Source of the DNA: Eubacterium limosum
GTDB lineage: Bacteria > Bacillota > Clostridia > Eubacteriales > Eubacteriaceae
NCBI RefSeq assembly: GCF_000807675.2
Contig: NZ_CP019962.1
Span: forward strand, 4,127,157-4,191,156
Direction of reading: 5' to 3'
Length of the DNA stretch: 64,000 bases
The first letter of the stretch is position 1. The number at the start of each line of letters is the position of its first letter. Under the pieces are notes generated by a model that was not told where the DNA came from, searched no databases, and saw only the letters and a program-made list of their open reading frames with translations. This document shows positions 6,540-60,885 of this stretch, one piece after another. Position numbers and translations under genes: made by a program.

Positions 6540-7818
6540 TGGTGAAGCACTCCCTTTTACTTATATCTTTAATATTTTCAGCAGTAATAGTAAAATAAAG
6601 TATAAGAAGTATACTAATTGCATTCCCACATCCTATTAAAAAATCTCCCTTAATATTCGAAATAAAATAATATATTCCTATTAAAAAAATAACTTTTTTA
6701 AAATATTTATCATTTGCTACTGTAATTGACATTCTCTTAAATATATATAAATACATATATACTATCAATAAAGTTCCAACTATTCCAAAAAAATAGATTT
6801 GTCTAAAAAAGCCTATATCTGTGTGTTTATAATATAAAATACCTTCTCCTTTATATCTTCCATCTCCTATTAAAAAAGATTTGGGACTAATATTAGAAAA
6901 GTTTTCTACCATTTTAATTAAGTTTTTTGATGTTCCAATTGAAAAGCTGCCTGTTTCCTCATATGAATAAATCATCTCAAAAGCATACACACTTATGTTG
7001 TGACTTATTTTTAAAACTTTATCTTTTCCTAAAAAAGAAAAAGCTATTATGATACTCAAAATTACAATTAGACCTCCATGAGTTATTATTCTTAAAATTT
7101 TGTTTTTTTCTTTTTTTCTATCATTCGAAATGTAACTAACAGATAAAAATATAGAAAATAATACTCCTATAAATCCTGTTCTCCCTGTAACACAAACTGA
7201 AATAAATATAGCAATATAAGCGGTAATATAAAAGTAAATTTGCTTTCTCGAAAGTTTGTTACTTATCATTTTGTAAATAATAAATATTAAAGCAAATGAT
7301 TGTATTACTCCTAAATCATAAGTAACCGAAGAAGCCATACCTAACCCTCTTATTCCGTTGTATCTTTTGAGCAAAGATTCTCTTTCAATTGATGTAATTG
7401 AAAAACATATTTCTCTGAATCCAGAAAATAGAAGCATTAACAAGATGAATAGCGCTTGAACAAAGGCGAGTATTATAAATAATCTTATAATATAGTTTTT
7501 ATTTAATTTATTTGTTCTTTTTAAAAGTTGAACAAATAGAAAAGCTCCTAAAAAATGATTCACTATAAAAAGGATAAGTGCATATAAAATGCTCATATCT
7601 TTGGATTCATTAATGATCATAATAAAAATCGAGTACAAAATTAATATAATCAAAAAAGCAACTATTTTGAACCATTCTTTTTTATAATATACAATTCTAT
7701 GGAATATTGTATATAGTAGTAAAATTATAACTACAATCTTCGAACTACTTATTGGAATTCCAACAAAAGGTATGTTGTAAACAAATAAAAATGCTAAAAT
7801 ATGTATGAGTATATCCAA
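6520..7818 (-). CDS. Wzy-like polysaccharide polymerase / O-antigen ligase-type membrane protein
   Basis: A 432-residue integral membrane protein with about 11-12 hydrophobic helices and one long extracytoplasmic loop (roughly residues 270-330) with several charged and aromatic residues (GDGRYKGEGILYYKHTDIGFF). That arrangement is typical of Wzy polymerases and WaaL-like ligases, which are poorly conserved in sequence. With a Wzx flippase and an initiating transferase in the same operon, polymerisation of the repeat unit on the outer face of the membrane is the likely role. Strongly AT-rich. The call rests on topology and context. Confidence 0.7.
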   Translation of the reverse strand: MDILIHILAFLFVYNIPFVGIPISSSKIVVIILLLYTIFHRIVYYKKEWFKIVAFLIILILYSIFIMIINESKDMSILYALILFIVNHFLGAFLFVQLLKRTNKLNKNYIIRLFIILAFVQALFILLMLLFSGFREICFSITSIERESLLKRYNGIRGLGMASSVTYDLGVIQSFALIFIIYKMISNKLSRKQIYFYITAYIAIFISVCVTGRTGFIGVLFSIFLSVSYISNDRKKEKNKILRIITHGGLIVILSIIIAFSFLGKDKVLKISHNISVYAFEMIYSYEETGSFSIGTSKNLIKMVENFSNISPKSFLIGDGRYKGEGILYYKHTDIGFFRQIYFFGIVGTLLIVYMYLYIFKRMSITVANDKYFKKVIFLIGIYYFISNIKGDFLIGCGNAISILLILYFTITAENIKDISKRECFTNENFIN

Positions 7819-7828
7819 ATCAACTCTC

Positions 7829-8962
7829 CTAGTTAGCTATATTAATAAAAAATTTTTCTAATTCTTTTATTGTTGTTTCTATATCAAAACCTGATTTAAT
7901 AGCATACTTGTAGTAATAATTTCTTTTTTTATTTATGCTAATTTTCAAAATCTCTTTTGCCCAATTTTCGGGTCCTTCTTTTAAAGATTTTGAATAAATA
8001 ATATCCGTTATATAGAGTTCTTTTGGAAGATTACTCGTTATTAAACATGGTAAACCTGAAGCCTGTGCTTCTATAACGGCAATTCCAAGCCCCTCAAACT
8101 TTGAAGGAAAAACAAAAAAATCCATCGTATTTAAATATTCATTAACATTTTCTTTTTCGCCCAAAAGTTTTACTTTTGGCTCCAAGCCTAATTGTTTGAT
8201 TTTATGCTTAATTTTAATTTCGAGGTCACCATTTCCAATGATCAAAAGGGTAGAATTGGGCTTATATTCTAAAATCTTTAAAAATATTTTAATTAAAAAA
8301 TCATGATTTTTTATCGCGGTAATTCTTCCTACATTCCCAACAACAAAATCTTTATCATTTAAATTTAATTCTCTTCGTATTTTTTTCCTTCTTTCTTCTG
8401 AATATCTAAACTTATCAACGAAAATCCCATTCTTTATTATATGAAAATGATTATTGTAAATGATTTTTTTTCCAAATAAATACATGCCCGCATTTTTACT
8501 ACAAGCAAAATAATAATCCGAAACTTTTAAAAGCTTTTTTTGGTTAACTCTACTTAAAAAATTAATTATTATTTCACAAATAAAGTTTTTAGCTTCAGAT
8601 TTTGACGCATGTGCATGTGTAATTACCTTTGCAGTAGTATACTTATGTGCCAGTTTATGGGCAAATATGCTACTAGCAGAACAGGTTTGTAACCATATAA
8701 AATTGTACTTGTTACTATTTCTAATAAAAAAGGATTTAATGTATTTTTTACATTTAAAATAATTTTCTCTTGGTTTATTTGTATGATATATCTCACTTCC
8801 CTCAGATATTAATAGTTTTTCATTATAACATTCATTATTATAAACCAAAAAATCTATTTGTATTTTTGTTTTGTCTATGCCTTTGAAAACATTAAAAATA
8901 AAGTTTTCAATTCCGCCGTTCACATTGCCATAGTCAACTACTAAAATTTTTATTTTTTTCAT
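7829..8962 (-). CDS. Glycosyltransferase family 4 (GT-B fold, EpsF-like)
   Basis: A 377-residue GT-B enzyme. The N-terminal half starts KILVVDYGNVNGGIENFIFN, the acceptor-domain glycine loop of GT4 proteins. The C-terminal half has VGNVGRITAIKNHDFLIKIF and LIIGNGDLE, then FVFPSKFEGLGIAVIEAQASGLP, the E-x7-E nucleotide-sugar binding signature. It is a retaining transferase that extends the lipid-linked oligosaccharide on the cytoplasmic side; the donor is unknown. Its start overlaps the end of the upstream GT2 gene by 29 bp, so the two are probably co-translated. Confidence 0.87.
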   Translation of the reverse strand: MKKIKILVVDYGNVNGGIENFIFNVFKGIDKTKIQIDFLVYNNECYNEKLLISEGSEIYHTNKPRENYFKCKKYIKSFFIRNSNKYNFIWLQTCSASSIFAHKLAHKYTTAKVITHAHASKSEAKNFICEIIINFLSRVNQKKLLKVSDYYFACSKNAGMYLFGKKIIYNNHFHIIKNGIFVDKFRYSEERRKKIRRELNLNDKDFVVGNVGRITAIKNHDFLIKIFLKILEYKPNSTLLIIGNGDLEIKIKHKIKQLGLEPKVKLLGEKENVNEYLNTMDFFVFPSKFEGLGIAVIEAQASGLPCLITSNLPKELYITDIIYSKSLKEGPENWAKEILKISINKKRNYYYKYAIKSGFDIETTIKELEKFFINIAN

Positions 8963-53442: not shown

Positions 53443-54333
53443 TCAAGAAACTTCGAGGGCTTGCTTCCTGTGAACAGCAGGAGGTAAGCCCTTTAGCTTG
53501 GCTTTGATACGACGGTTATTGTAGTAGTCAAGGTACTCGATCAGCTCGGCTTTGAACTGATCCATAGAGTCAAACTCTTTCATGTATAGGAGCTCGCTCT
53601 TCACTAGTCCAAAGAAGTTCTCTATCACAGCATTGTCAAGACAGTTGCTCTTTCTGCTCATGCTCTGCTTGATACTATGATCTTTAAGCAACTTCTGATA
53701 CTGCTTGTGTTGGTACTGCCAGCCCTGATCGGAGTGGAGGATCGGTTCTGCCCTGCGGGGCAGAACCGACAGCGCCCGCCTCGCCATGTTCAGCACCAGA
53801 GACAGAGCCGGACGTTCGCTAATAGTGTAGCTCACAAGGTAGCTCGAATGGAGATCGAGTATCGGTGAGAGATAGCGTTTCCGTCCGAAGAGAGAGAACT
53901 CCGTGACGTCCGTTACCCACTTCTCGTTCGGCGCCGAGGTGCTGAAATCTCTCTCAAGCAGGTTCGGTGCTACCTTCCCGACTTCGCCCTTGTAGGAGCG
54001 ATATTTCTTAATGCGTACCATGCATTTTATCTTCTCTTCATTCATCAATCGCAAAACGGTTTTGTGATTGATGACGTAACCACGGTTGTGCATTTCCATG
54101 GTTATCCTTCGATAGCCATATCGTCCCTTGTTCTCATGGAATATGTCAGTGATCTGTTTCCTTATCTCGTTGTCCTTGTCCTCGTCCTTCATGTGCTTGA
54201 TGTAGTAATAGTACGTAGAACGGGGAAGCTCTGCTATCTCCAACAGCAGCGACAGCTTGAATTCATGCCTTAATTCCCAGATCATTTGCGCCCTTTGCCT
54301 TGGCGTTCCTCTTCCTGAATTAAGGCTCGCCAT
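53443..54333 (-). CDS. IS3-family transposase OrfB (DDE integrase domain)
   Basis: A 296-residue catalytic subunit. The rve-type core has the three acidic residues: first in WVTDVTEF near residue 140, second in ILHSDQGWQYQH near 200, third in NCLDNAVIENFFGLVKSE near 236. An N-terminal HTH_21-like region (GRYGYRRITMEMHNRG) precedes them. It is normally made as an OrfA-OrfB fusion by -1 slippage on A7 at 54333-54339; the ATG here uses the last A of that run. The frame is intact. Confidence 0.93.
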   Translation of the reverse strand: MASLNSGRGTPRQRAQMIWELRHEFKLSLLLEIAELPRSTYYYYIKHMKDEDKDNEIRKQITDIFHENKGRYGYRRITMEMHNRGYVINHKTVLRLMNEEKIKCMVRIKKYRSYKGEVGKVAPNLLERDFSTSAPNEKWVTDVTEFSLFGRKRYLSPILDLHSSYLVSYTISERPALSLVLNMARRALSVLPRRAEPILHSDQGWQYQHKQYQKLLKDHSIKQSMSRKSNCLDNAVIENFFGLVKSELLYMKEFDSMDQFKAELIEYLDYYNNRRIKAKLKGLPPAVHRKQALEVS

Positions 54334-58649: not shown

Positions 58650-59459
58650 TTATGCTTCCACAAATTCCAGCAAAGTCTGATTAAATTTATCTGGTTCTTC
58701 CCAGAAAAGCATATGGCCGGATTCTTCAAAAAATACGGTCTTCGCATTTGGTATCACTTCGCCAACATAGGCGCTTCCCTGCCAGTCAAAAACATTGCTG
58801 TGACGCGCCACGCACACCAGCGTAGGCATATCGATAAAAGGAAGGAAGTCCCGCCAGTCCAGATTGGTATGGTCACGCATAACTTCGATTCTTACATAAG
58901 GCGGACATTTTGAGATTTCATCCGCAATAAATTTCACTTCTTCGTCTGATGGCGTATGGTGCAGGCAGGCGGTTGCCAGCCCCTCCGCACTTTCTCTCGG
59001 GGCATATTTGATATCATAACAGGTACGAATAAACATTTCCACATCATAGCAGCCGTTCTGCCCCCAAACCCAATCCGGGCCGGTGTACTGAAGCGGCGCC
59101 TGATCGACACATACCAGCTTGCTGACACGATGTTTTCCAAAAAGCTCAATATAGCTCCACAGGATAGCCGCCCCCATGGACCATCCCAAAACGGTTACGT
59201 CCTCAACGTCCAGATGATCCAGAAGATTTTTTACGTCCATCGCATAGCGTGAAATACGGTGGCTATGCATGACTTTTTCAGATTCTCCATGTCCTCTGTA
59301 GTCGAGAAGAATCACCTGACATTTTTCTGCCAGTACATCGCTGTTCTTTTTAAAGAACTGCGTGGTACAGGTCCAGCCTGGAATCATTAGAACCGGTTTC
59401 CCTTCACCCTTAACCTCATAATAAAGCTCAACATTATCATTTGTCTTAAATGTTGCCAT
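58650..59459 (-). CDS. Alpha/beta hydrolase
   Basis: A 269-residue hydrolase. VLMIPGWTC is the oxyanion loop, LDYRGHGESE follows, VTVLGWSMGAAILWSYI carries the nucleophile serine (G-W-S-M-G, near residue 96), and the late FFEESGHMLFWEEPDKFNQTLLEF has the catalytic histidine. The acid would be the aspartate near VCVARHSNVFDW. There is no signal peptide. The substrate is unknown. The ATG at 59459 has GGAGG seven bases upstream, and the gene stands alone between its own promoter region and a terminator. Confidence 0.88.
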   Translation of the reverse strand: MATFKTNDNVELYYEVKGEGKPVLMIPGWTCTTQFFKKNSDVLAEKCQVILLDYRGHGESEKVMHSHRISRYAMDVKNLLDHLDVEDVTVLGWSMGAAILWSYIELFGKHRVSKLVCVDQAPLQYTGPDWVWGQNGCYDVEMFIRTCYDIKYAPRESAEGLATACLHHTPSDEEVKFIADEISKCPPYVRIEVMRDHTNLDWRDFLPFIDMPTLVCVARHSNVFDWQGSAYVGEVIPNAKTVFFEESGHMLFWEEPDKFNQTLLEFVEA

Positions 59460-59673
59460 TTGCATACCTCCTGTTAACTTTCCATTTAATTGTTTTTATT
59501 GTAAACCTTTTTCATGCACAATACAATAGGGTTCAAGCACAGAAAAACCATTCTTCCATTGTACAACAATACAATCGCTCTCTTTTTAGGGATCGAAAAA
59601 CAGTCTTCCTGCCCGGCGCATCTGTGTTATAATACTATAATAATATATTCGCTATAAACTGGAGGTATAAACA

Positions 59674-60135
59674 ATGGGCGTATACAATGGCACTGGTTAC
59701 TTTATCAGCGCAGAGGATCTAAACCGGATAAAAATTTCCGAGATAGAGGCACAGTATCCAAAGGTCCGTGATATTTTTTTAAAGGAAAATAAAACGTCAT
59801 TTTCACCAGAAGAAGACTCTTTTCTCAGACTGCTGCAGGCCAGTGAACTGGCGACAGACGAAACGATTATCCAATACGGCGATTCTGTTCACTTTACAGG
59901 GATTTTCAAAAAATACCTCGACGAAGACGATATTAAACCAGGAACCGGAGATTATGAGATGGTCGAAAAGCTTTTAAATGAAGACGGCTATGATTATGCT
60001 GTCAGCAATGAAACTGAGTTGACGCCTTCCCTTGAGACACTCAATGTCATTCTCAGGGAGTTTGGGTTGATCAGCAATCATGACATTCTTGAAACCTACT
60101 GGTTTTTAATGCCATACATTGGAGACTGCCCGTAA
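59674..60135 (+). CDS. Hypothetical acidic protein
   Basis: A 153-residue acidic, soluble protein without a domain I recognise. It starts MGVYNGTGYFISAEDLNRIK, has an acidic mid-region (KKYLDEDDIKPGTGDYEMVEKLLNEDGYDY), and ends LETYWFLMPYIGDCP. Expression is likely: GGAGG lies eight bases before the ATG, TATAAT boxes lie near 59635, and a strong terminator follows the stop. It is monocistronic and not clearly related to its neighbours. Confidence 0.75.
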   Translation: MGVYNGTGYFISAEDLNRIKISEIEAQYPKVRDIFLKENKTSFSPEEDSFLRLLQASELATDETIIQYGDSVHFTGIFKKYLDEDDIKPGTGDYEMVEKLLNEDGYDYAVSNETELTPSLETLNVILREFGLISNHDILETYWFLMPYIGDCP

Positions 60136-60181
60136 AAAACAAAGCAGGAAACTTTAGGGGAAAAGTTTCCTGCTTTGTTTT
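60136..60181. terminator. Strong bidirectional terminator
   Basis: AACAAAGCAGGAAACTT pairs perfectly with AAGTTTCCTGCTTTGTT around a short loop, flanked by A-run and T-run. It ends the hypothetical gene (+) and can also end the micropeptide transcript (-). Confidence 0.92.
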
Positions 60182-60310
60182 TGAAAGATTATTTAATAAG
60201 GGGGTTTGAGGAGATCAAACTAATTTATAATCTAAGGGGAGGATTATTTAGTTTAATATGTAATTCGTTCTATATTTTAATTTATCAAATATTGGAGGGA
60301 GATTGTAAGA

Positions 60311-60370
60311 TTATTTGGAAGCTTTTAAAGCCTTTTCCATCATTGCTTTTAATGGGTTATAGTACATCAT
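60311..60370 (-). CDS. Micropeptide 2, MMYYNPLKAMMEKALKASK (19 aa)
   Basis: A 19-codon frame with ATG at 60370 and TAA at 60313-60311. AGAGGTG lies seven bases before the start, a good ribosome site. The peptide is cationic (net about +3) and could form an amphipathic helix after the proline. It is 13/19 identical to the peptide encoded 98 bp upstream on the same strand; NPLK, EK, ALK and the final K are kept. A GATAAT/ATTATC-type hairpin follows the upstream copy and a related one follows this copy near 60227-60252. I do not recognise the family. No longer protein gene competes for this position. Confidence 0.65.
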   Translation of the reverse strand: MMYYNPLKAMMEKALKASK

Positions 60371-60468
60371 TTCTTTTCACCTCTTTCAAGTTTGGTTATA
60401 TTTCAGATGATAATCTTAGGGGAAAAATTATCATTTCCTGATCTTTAAATATATTTACCCAGTTTTAA

Positions 60469-60528
60469 TTATTTAACACTTTTCAATGCTTTTTCTCTTA
60501 ATTTTTTTAATGGGTTATAGTAATACAT
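60469..60528 (-). CDS. Micropeptide 1, MYYYNPLKKLREKALKSVK (19 aa)
   Basis: A 19-codon frame with ATG at 60528 and TAA at 60471-60469, preceded by GAAGG seven bases upstream. It is the promoter-proximal member of a tandem pair. Net charge is about +5. Its sequence aligns end to end with the second peptide without gaps, and several nucleotide differences are synonymous (for example TAC/TAT context and AAA/AAG), as expected under selection on the peptide. The transcript should begin near 60569 from a MerR-type promoter, giving a leader of about 40 nt. Possible roles include a signalling peptide, membrane-active peptide or regulatory peptide; none is established. Confidence 0.68.
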   Translation of the reverse strand: MYYYNPLKKLREKALKSVK

Positions 60529-60575: not shown

Positions 60576-60606
60576 ATTTTAAATCCTAGAGCATACTCTA
60601 GGTCAA
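60576..60606 (-). promoter_or_regulatory. MerR-type promoter with 19-bp spacer and central dyad
   Basis: Minus-strand -35 TTGACC (60606-60601) and -10 TAAAAT (60581-60576) are 19 bp apart. The dyad CCTAGAG-N4-CTCTAGG (60585-60602) lies between them. A long spacer with a dyad is the classic layout for MerR-family activators, and the half-site resembles those of AdhR/NmlR-type members. No merR-family gene is in the window. Confidence 0.75.
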
Positions 60607-60670: not shown

Positions 60671-60885
60671 ATCATTCTGTTTACAACGGCTGATTCTCGA
60701 TGTTTTTATATCAAGTACTTTCCGTTTTTTGTATGCAACTATACAAGAATTATTCTTTTTTATATTTAAGATTTTTTTAAGTTTCTTTTTAAATATAAAA
60801 ACAGCCGCTTTTTTTAAACGGAAACAATAGAGCGAACTCTAGCTTTTGCTTATTAAATTCATATTACAAGAGCCCTCTCCACTTT

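What the first reader, a model, noticed from the sequence alone, without database searches (positions are those of the whole stretch)
60311..60528. Tandem homologous 19-residue peptides with a YYNPLK core
Seen directly: two minus-strand frames of exactly 19 codons, MYYYNPLKKLREKALKSVK and MMYYNPLKAMMEKALKASK, align without gaps (13/19 identical), each with a ribosome site seven bases before its ATG. They are too short for standard gene callers. Conservation of peptide with synonymous DNA changes and a dedicated promoter argue for real translated products. Inference: cationic, potentially amphipathic peptides that could be signalling, membrane-active or regulatory. I know of no described family with this motif.
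Basis: partly seen in the sequence, partly recalled or inferred. Interest (0 to 1): 0.85.

Follow-up and report, generated by a model that had tools for sequence, protein, structure and literature searches.

The report
MerR-controlled tandem micropeptides with RNA tail
The gut acetogen Eubacterium limosum appears to make a previously undescribed family of 16-22-residue peptides from two stress-regulator-controlled transcripts, and the copy found here ends in an unusually conserved RNA tail that resembles a small regulatory RNA.

Summary
The two 19-codon frames (W1, W2) belong to a family with seven members in this genome, whose length equals that published for E. limosum ATCC 8486. A second locus encodes five more MMYYNP peptides plus a Cys-rich peptide, divergent from an NmlR-like MerR regulator. 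Both arrays start at the same MerR-type promoter (19-bp spacer). Only two such sites exist in the genome, and 7 of 7 exact sites in 41 genomes precede YYNP peptides. Pooled pN/pS of 0.07-0.14 in five informative genome pairs argues for translation. Divergent merR-peptide arrays also occur in E. aggregans, E. barkeri and a same-genus draft genome; elsewhere only singletons or unrelated matches appeared.
The window copy is changing: W1 lost its start and SD in two of four species. The tail after W2 is 96% identical where the adjacent coding sequence is 86%, and it is C-rich and G-poor with UCCCC loops, as in SD-blocking sRNAs. Best reading: a stress-induced dual-function RNA. A 14-nt match to a pdu-operon ribosome site is only a candidate target. 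Peptide function is inferred.

The parts
60828..60841 (-). second MerR-type dyad (TAGAG-TTCG-CTCTA), equivalent of the box that lies in front of merR at the second locus; no merR gene is beside it here
   Evidence: read; matching box at L002; dyad kept in G000, G001, G003 (TAGAGN4CTCTA) and as TAGAGCTGACTCTA in G002
60576..60606 (-). MerR-type promoter: -35 TTGACC (60606..60601), 19-bp spacer with CTAGAGTATGCTCTAG dyad, -10 TAAAAT (60581..60576)
   Evidence: the same site precedes the second locus and there are only these two in the genome at up to 1 mismatch, control 0
60469..60528 (-). peptide frame W1, MYYYNPLKKLREKALKSVK; intact in G000 and G003, start and SD lost in G001 and G002
60407..60434 (-). 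predicted hairpin between W1 and W2, loop UCCCCU
   Evidence: z -1.31 for the whole spacer, so weak by energy alone; stem kept in 4 of 4 species (by reading)
60311..60370 (-). peptide frame W2, MMYYNPLKAMMEKALKASK; intact in 4 of 4 species
60135..60310 (-). conserved C-rich, G-poor 3' tail (28 C, 6 G in the 128 nt before the terminator), candidate regulatory RNA part
   Evidence: identity G000-G002 0.96 over 179 columns against 86% for 291 nt of the adjacent coding sequence (Fisher p 4e-4); composition
60215..60256 (-). predicted hairpin, loop CUCCCCUUA
   Evidence: z -1.80 for the 128-nt tail without terminator
60191..60204 (-). CCCCCUUAUUAAAU, 14 nt complementary to the SD region of a pdu-operon gene; its first 10 nt recur in the terminator loops of the second locus and of the G004 array
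60135..60182 (-). intrinsic terminator, loop UCCCCU; lies against the end of the convergent gene 59674..60135 (+)
   Evidence: z -8.48; sequence

Best explanation
The window holds the second, satellite locus of a small dedicated regulon. An NmlR-like MerR activator encoded at the other locus binds the dyad in the 19-bp spacer of two promoters and switches on two transcripts. Each transcript encodes tandem YYNP micropeptides and ends in a C-rich tail with UCCCC in the terminator loop. Shown by sequence: shared operator and promoter geometry, peptide family, purifying selection on the peptides, conserved tail. Inferred: (1) the inducer is a reactive aldehyde, electrophile or thiol stress, because the regulator is closest to NmlR; (2) the peptides work inside the cell as N-capped (Asn-Pro) amphipathic helices that bind a partner; (3) the window transcript is a dual-function RNA: it makes W2 (and W1 in two species), and its exposed UCCCC/CCUCCCC stretches pair with Shine-Dalgarno sequences of target mRNAs. 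A candidate target is a membrane-protein gene in the propanediol-utilisation microcompartment operon, which would form a feedback against propionaldehyde production.
For: Second locus with five peptides, merR divergent from it. Operator at only 2 places in the own genome, both at peptide arrays; 7 of 7 exact sites in 41 genomes precede YYNP peptides. 19-bp spacers at the promoters of the window, second locus, G012 and G004 (read), the geometry that the MerR review gives as typical (PMC9909328, passages). pN/pS 0.07-0.14 pooled over A1-A5 and W2 in 5 of 6 pairs; the sixth, G000-G003, is nearly identical; Fisher p 3e-6 to 4e-10 for the three pairs tested. The regulator's best PDB match is H. influenzae NmlR, E 2.4e-31. 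Tail identity above that of the adjacent coding sequence, GC skew -0.65, as low in 0.13% of 3,990 window strands, UCCCC loops. [quoted passage not shown] CCCCCTTATT is shared by the window tail and the terminator loops of the second locus and of G004. 14-nt complement at the SD of a pdu-operon gene, with the same target sequence in 4 of 4 species.
Against: No expression data were examined. Apart from the terminator the hairpins are weak: z -1.80 and -1.31. Rfam gave no match at a curated cut-off; FsrA and RsaD matches are far below it, and microRNA families score as well. Three runs of CCC or more are only marginally more than shuffles (p 0.048). The duplex energy with the pdu target is not exceptional: 8.1% of 148 background starts are as strong. 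About 0.13 such 14-nt matches are expected by chance. The 10-mer AATAAGGGGG is not enriched (5 hits against 8 for the reversed control in G000), and 5 of 9 hits in G004 are at other genes' SDs. A first candidate target (SD of a kinase-like gene) was not conserved in G001-G003. The regulator scores below the NCBIfam NmlR cut-off (101.8 against 175), and the NmlR-clade Cys is Val in G004. G012 has peptides but no C-rich terminator loop. Nothing tests the peptides' partner.
Confidence: 0.5

Rival explanations
1. Peptides only: the micropeptides are the sole product, and the tail is merely a conserved untranslated region that stabilises or terminates the mRNA.
For: Every array, including G012 without a C-rich terminator loop, keeps the peptides; strong codon constraint; hairpins weak by energy; target predictions not decisive.
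Against: In the window locus the tail is at least as well conserved as W2 and better than the adjacent coding sequence, while W1 has been lost twice. The strong C over G bias and the 10-mer shared with other terminator loops are not needed for mere stability.
Confidence: 0.33
2. Membrane-active or secreted amphipathic peptides (PSM-like) made in response to stress.
For: Helical moment higher than 95% of shuffles in 6 of 10 peptides; multi-copy arrays as in PSM loci (recalled).
Against: Low mean hydrophobicity of the helix part (-0.13 to -0.49), net charge from -2 to +5; W1, W2, A1 and B2 do not pass the shuffle test. I saw no exporter gene in the ORF lists beside the loci. The motif is kept inside a fused peptide in G004, which suits a binding motif better than a free lytic helix.
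Confidence: 0.12
3. Microprotein feedback: the peptides mimic a helix of the MerR regulator and poison its dimer.
For: Coiled-coil-like heptads in the G012 peptides; local matches to the regulator's C-terminal helix in A4, A5, B2 and B3.
Against: Similarity to the regulator is within shuffle noise for 10 of 10 peptides (z -0.4 to 2.0).
Confidence: 0.05

Closest known systems
LhrC sRNAs of Listeria monocytogenes (and the UCCC-motif class: RNAIII, RsaE, SprD, FsrA, as listed in PMC4132741, passages)
   [quoted passage not shown] stress-induced.
   Different: The window RNA encodes conserved peptides, has a MerR-type promoter, and no target has been shown. Rfam gives no curated-level match.
Dual-function RNAs such as SR1/SR1P and VcdRP (abstract starts only) and RNAIII/delta-haemolysin (recalled)
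   Same: One short transcript with a small ORF and a candidate base-pairing part.
   Different: Several paralogous ORFs in tandem per transcript; control by a dedicated MerR regulator; base pairing not demonstrated.
NmlR/AdhR regulators (H. influenzae NmlR, PDB 5d8c/5e01; B. subtilis AdhR)
   Same: Short MerR protein without a long sensor domain, best PDB match; divergent target; 19-bp spacer.
   Different: Known regulons are enzymes such as adhC/estD (PMC4776306 and PMC9909328, passages); here the only sites found drive micropeptides. Below the NCBIfam NmlR cut-off.
Phenol-soluble modulins (recalled)
   Same: Tandem paralogous short peptides without signal peptide, partly amphipathic.
   Different: Lower hydrophobicity, conserved YYNP head, no exporter seen nearby, MerR control.

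Membership tests
MerR-family regulator (locus A) | MerR HTH domain above Pfam gathering score | tested here: met
   PF13411 88.2 bits, cut-off 21.6; PF00376 58.9, cut-off 28.2
MerR-type promoter | dyad inside a 19-20-bp -35/-10 spacer | tested here: met
   19 bp in the window, locus A, G004 and G012 promoters (read); definition from PMC9909328 passages
NmlR | NCBIfam NF041849 equivalog cut-off | tested here: not met
   101.8 bits against 175
NmlR | conserved Cys54 (absolute in the clade, PMC4776306 passage) | tested here: inconclusive
   Cys in 6 of 7 orthologues, Val in G004, where the preceding residue is Cys
NmlR | induction by formaldehyde or other electrophiles | not testable with these tools
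   needs an expression experiment
UCCC-motif trans-acting sRNA | C-rich motif in loops or single strands | tested here: met
   UCCCCU, CUCCCCUUA and UCCCCU loops in predicted folds
UCCC-motif trans-acting sRNA | conserved complementarity to target SDs | tested here: inconclusive
   pdu-operon site: 14 nt in 3 of 4 species, 13 in G001, chance expectation 0.13; kinase-like site not conserved
FsrA / RsaD (Rfam) | gathering score | tested here: not met
   25.9 of 80 and 27.2 of 50 bits
Dual-function RNA | translated ORF | tested here: inconclusive
   codon constraint strong; no ribosome data examined
Phenol-soluble modulins | amphipathic, membrane-active helix | tested here: inconclusive
   moment above 95% of shuffles in 6 of 10 peptides, hydrophobicity low in 10 of 10

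The most novel reading that the evidence does not exclude
An aldehyde/thiol-stress MerR regulator drives a micropeptide-encoding dual-function RNA whose C-rich tail silences part of the propanediol-utilisation microcompartment operon, so that a toxic-aldehyde organelle is throttled by an RNA-plus-peptide feedback loop, with the YYNP micropeptides as a new class of intracellular effectors.
Probability: 0.1. Interest if true: 0.87.

Novelty: new variant of a known kind. Interest (0 to 1): 0.62.

Why it matters
It adds a micropeptide family that annotation misses in a well-studied gut acetogen, ties it to a dedicated regulator, and shows one locus in which a peptide frame decays while its RNA tail stays fixed, which could be an RNA gene emerging from a peptide operon. 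If the genome is ATCC 8486, as its exact length suggests, published TSS and ribosome-profiling data (GSE97613, named in PMC6260860) could test translation at once.

Tried and rejected
Homologues beyond Eubacterium: the genome contigs pattern scan gave 21 stretches. Four are real (E. callanderi two, E. aggregans, E. barkeri). Fourteen are the C-terminus of one long Treponema/Spirochaete protein (MYYNPFAALLKK) and three are unrelated single frames. Viral contigs 0; plasmids 0 for peptide A4. The 21-row profile over 391 class genomes found arrays only in G000 and G012, plus five singletons at E 0.008-0.042. ATGATGTAYTAYAAYCC: 2 of 391 genomes, with the reversed control matching in 2 others.

Acetobacterium-type MerR homologues (48% identity and less) were checked at six loci (L055-L060) for YYNP frames: none seen. 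L055 sits beside an iron-sulphur protein ORF and L056 beside an aldo/keto-reductase-like ORF (names by recall).

MerR mimicry by the peptides: z -0.4 to 2.0, rejected. Kinase-like target: not conserved. Pairing of the tail with the arrays' own SDs: not better than 21% of 70 background starts. Rfam matches: taken as chance, microRNA families score equally. The Cys-rich sixth peptide of locus A: its GxPCGFCC pattern occurs in 1 of 291 class genomes, the own one. PMC7079680 was opened for its 'MerR' occurrences, which are an author name.

Rows dropped: pooled pN/pS leaves out W1 (start lost in two species) and the Cys-rich peptide (gapped in the alignment). L058 gave no regulator with my text pattern. 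The first alignment of the window locus had G001 in the wrong orientation and was redone. In the DNA alignment, two rows were cut short at the 3' end, so I used instead.

Full report
Observation. The window is G000:C1:4127157-4191156 of a 4,422,837-base single contig. The paper on E. limosum ATCC 8486 gives exactly that genome size (PMC5651825, section 5 read), so the strain is very probably that one. The upstream coding sequence resembles thiI (recalled name).

A second locus. DNA search of the own genome hit G000:C1:435.2-435.5 kb. There, in the same order of promoter and frames, lie five tandem peptides: MMYYNPRRAALLELKKVVEESK, MMYYNPMKSLLEKLERGAKASK, MMYYNPIRKLLEKASR, MMYYNPIRKLLEEIELAEKSAK and MMYYNPLRKLYSELEESAE, each with its own SD. 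A sixth, Cys-rich frame follows, MFVFGKENKHSVGAPCGFCCDTDRK, kept in G001 and G002 by reading of the alignment. The array is divergent from a MerR-family gene (L008 7799-8257 +, inside the 7718-8260 frame). In the window locus no merR gene is adjacent, but a second dyad like the one before merR remains at 60841..60828, which suggests that the locus arose by duplication of the merR-array region.

Promoter. Both arrays start at TTGACC-TAGAGTATGCTCTAGG..., with 19 bp between -35 and -10. With up to one mismatch the 22-nt site occurs only at these two places, with 0 control hits. Among 41 genomes (own included) there are 7 exact sites, in 4 same-genus genomes, and all 7 precede YYNP peptides. G004 and G012 have variant sites, also with 19-bp spacers. 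A review gives 19-20-bp spacers as typical of MerR promoters (PMC9909328, passages).

Regulator. The closest solved structures are H. influenzae NmlR (E 2.4e-31). The NCBIfam NmlR model scores 101.8 against a cut-off of 175. The Cys that PMC4776306 calls absolutely conserved (passage) is Cys in 6 of 7 orthologues and Val in G004. I therefore call it NmlR-like and infer, not claim, an aldehyde or thiol stress signal.

Selection. Over A1-A5 and W2, pN/pS is 0.125 (G000-G001), 0.086 (G000-G002), 0.099 (G003-G001), 0.070 (G003-G002) and 0.139 (G001-G002). G000-G003 (0.236) rests on two changes, because locus A is identical there. Fisher tests for three pairs give p 3e-6, 4e-10 and 6e-8. The pairs are not independent. 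W1 is degraded in G001 and G002.

Distribution. Besides G000-G003, G004 has a merR-divergent array with two fused double peptides (for example MMYYNPMRKRLESLAKVSEKSGRAEHSEKQAGTMYYNPTRKLLESLEEASR) and two single ones. G012 and G018 have three peptides each, one with the head changed to VYASP. Other searches found nothing convincing.

Peptide anatomy. Head M(M)YYNP, then a Lys/Glu-rich helix. Asn-Pro is a classical helix N-cap (recalled). The helical moment exceeds 95% of shuffles in 6 of 10 peptides, but not in W1, W2, A1 or B2. Hydrophobicity is low and charge mixed. The motif is kept inside fused peptides. I favour a soluble binding helix; the partner is unknown.

RNA tail. The 179 columns after W2 are 0.95-0.97 identical to G000 in three species (0.96 in G002), against 93%, 90% and 86% for 291 nt of the adjacent coding sequence in G003, G001 and G002; for G002 the difference has Fisher p 4e-4. 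At locus A the tail is less conserved (0.72 in G002). The 128 nt before the terminator hold 28 C and 6 G. Three predicted hairpins show UCCCCU, CUCCCCUUA and UCCCCU loops, but only the terminator is strong by energy (z -8.48; the others -1.80 and -1.31 for their regions). LhrC has a matching layout (PMC4132741, passages). CCCCCTTATT recurs in the terminator loops of locus A (G000, G001, G003) and of G004.

Targets. TAAGGGGAGGA, complement of the second loop, occurs once outside the locus, at the SD of a kinase-like gene, but not in G001-G003. AATAAGGGGG has three non-self hits in G000. Two are SDs: a 5'-nucleotidase-like gene (also in G003) and a 313-codon membrane-protein-like gene, the latter in 4 of 4 species with the complement extending to 14 nt, 13 in G001. 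That gene lies between an RnfC/PduS-like gene and a PduT-like gene, in an operon with diol dehydratase small subunit, PduG, phosphate propanoyltransferase, PduO and an aldehyde dehydrogenase (PduT is below its cut-off). Against it: 0.13 such matches expected by chance, duplex energy equalled by 8.1% of 148 background starts, and no enrichment of the 10-mer over its reversed control.

Prior work. No paper in the held library contains four motif strings. Searches on E. limosum with MerR, ribosome profiling or small proteins returned no description in their listings. In PMC6260860 the words 'small ORF', 'unannotated' and 'MerR' do not occur. PMC5651825 reports 100 intergenic TSSs (passages); its tables were not available to me.

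Verdict. A real, dedicated MerR-micropeptide regulon, unknown to the resources searched, restricted to Eubacterium as far as seen. The window copy looks like a dual-function RNA. Interest 0.62, because function and target remain inferred.

Noticed in passing
L008 6962..6886 region, minus strand (G000:C1:434.7-434.8 kb): A Cys-rich 25-residue frame (MFVFGKENKHSVGAPCGFCCDTDRK) with a strong SD ends the five-peptide array and is kept with synonymous changes in G001 and G002; its GxPCGFCC pattern was in 1 of 291 class genomes, the own one.
   Followed up: partly
L052 1040..480, minus strand (G004): Two frames fuse two YYNP units with a linker, so the motif also works, or is at least kept, inside a longer peptide.
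   Followed up: partly
L028, L030, L033, L034, L036, L037, L040-L047: A long Treponema/Spirochaete protein ends in MYYNPFAALLKK in 14 stretches; it resembles the peptide head by chance or as a terminal docking motif. The protein was not identified.
   Followed up: no
L145 10059..11000: A 313-codon membrane-protein-like gene inside the pdu microcompartment operon has no Pfam or NCBIfam match.
   Followed up: partly
window 53443..54333: Frame that looks like an IS3-type transposase (name by recall), minus strand.
   Followed up: no
L144, and window 58650..59465: In G004 the relative of the window's alpha/beta-hydrolase-like gene has an AATAAGGGGG SD, complementary to the C-rich loops.
   Followed up: no
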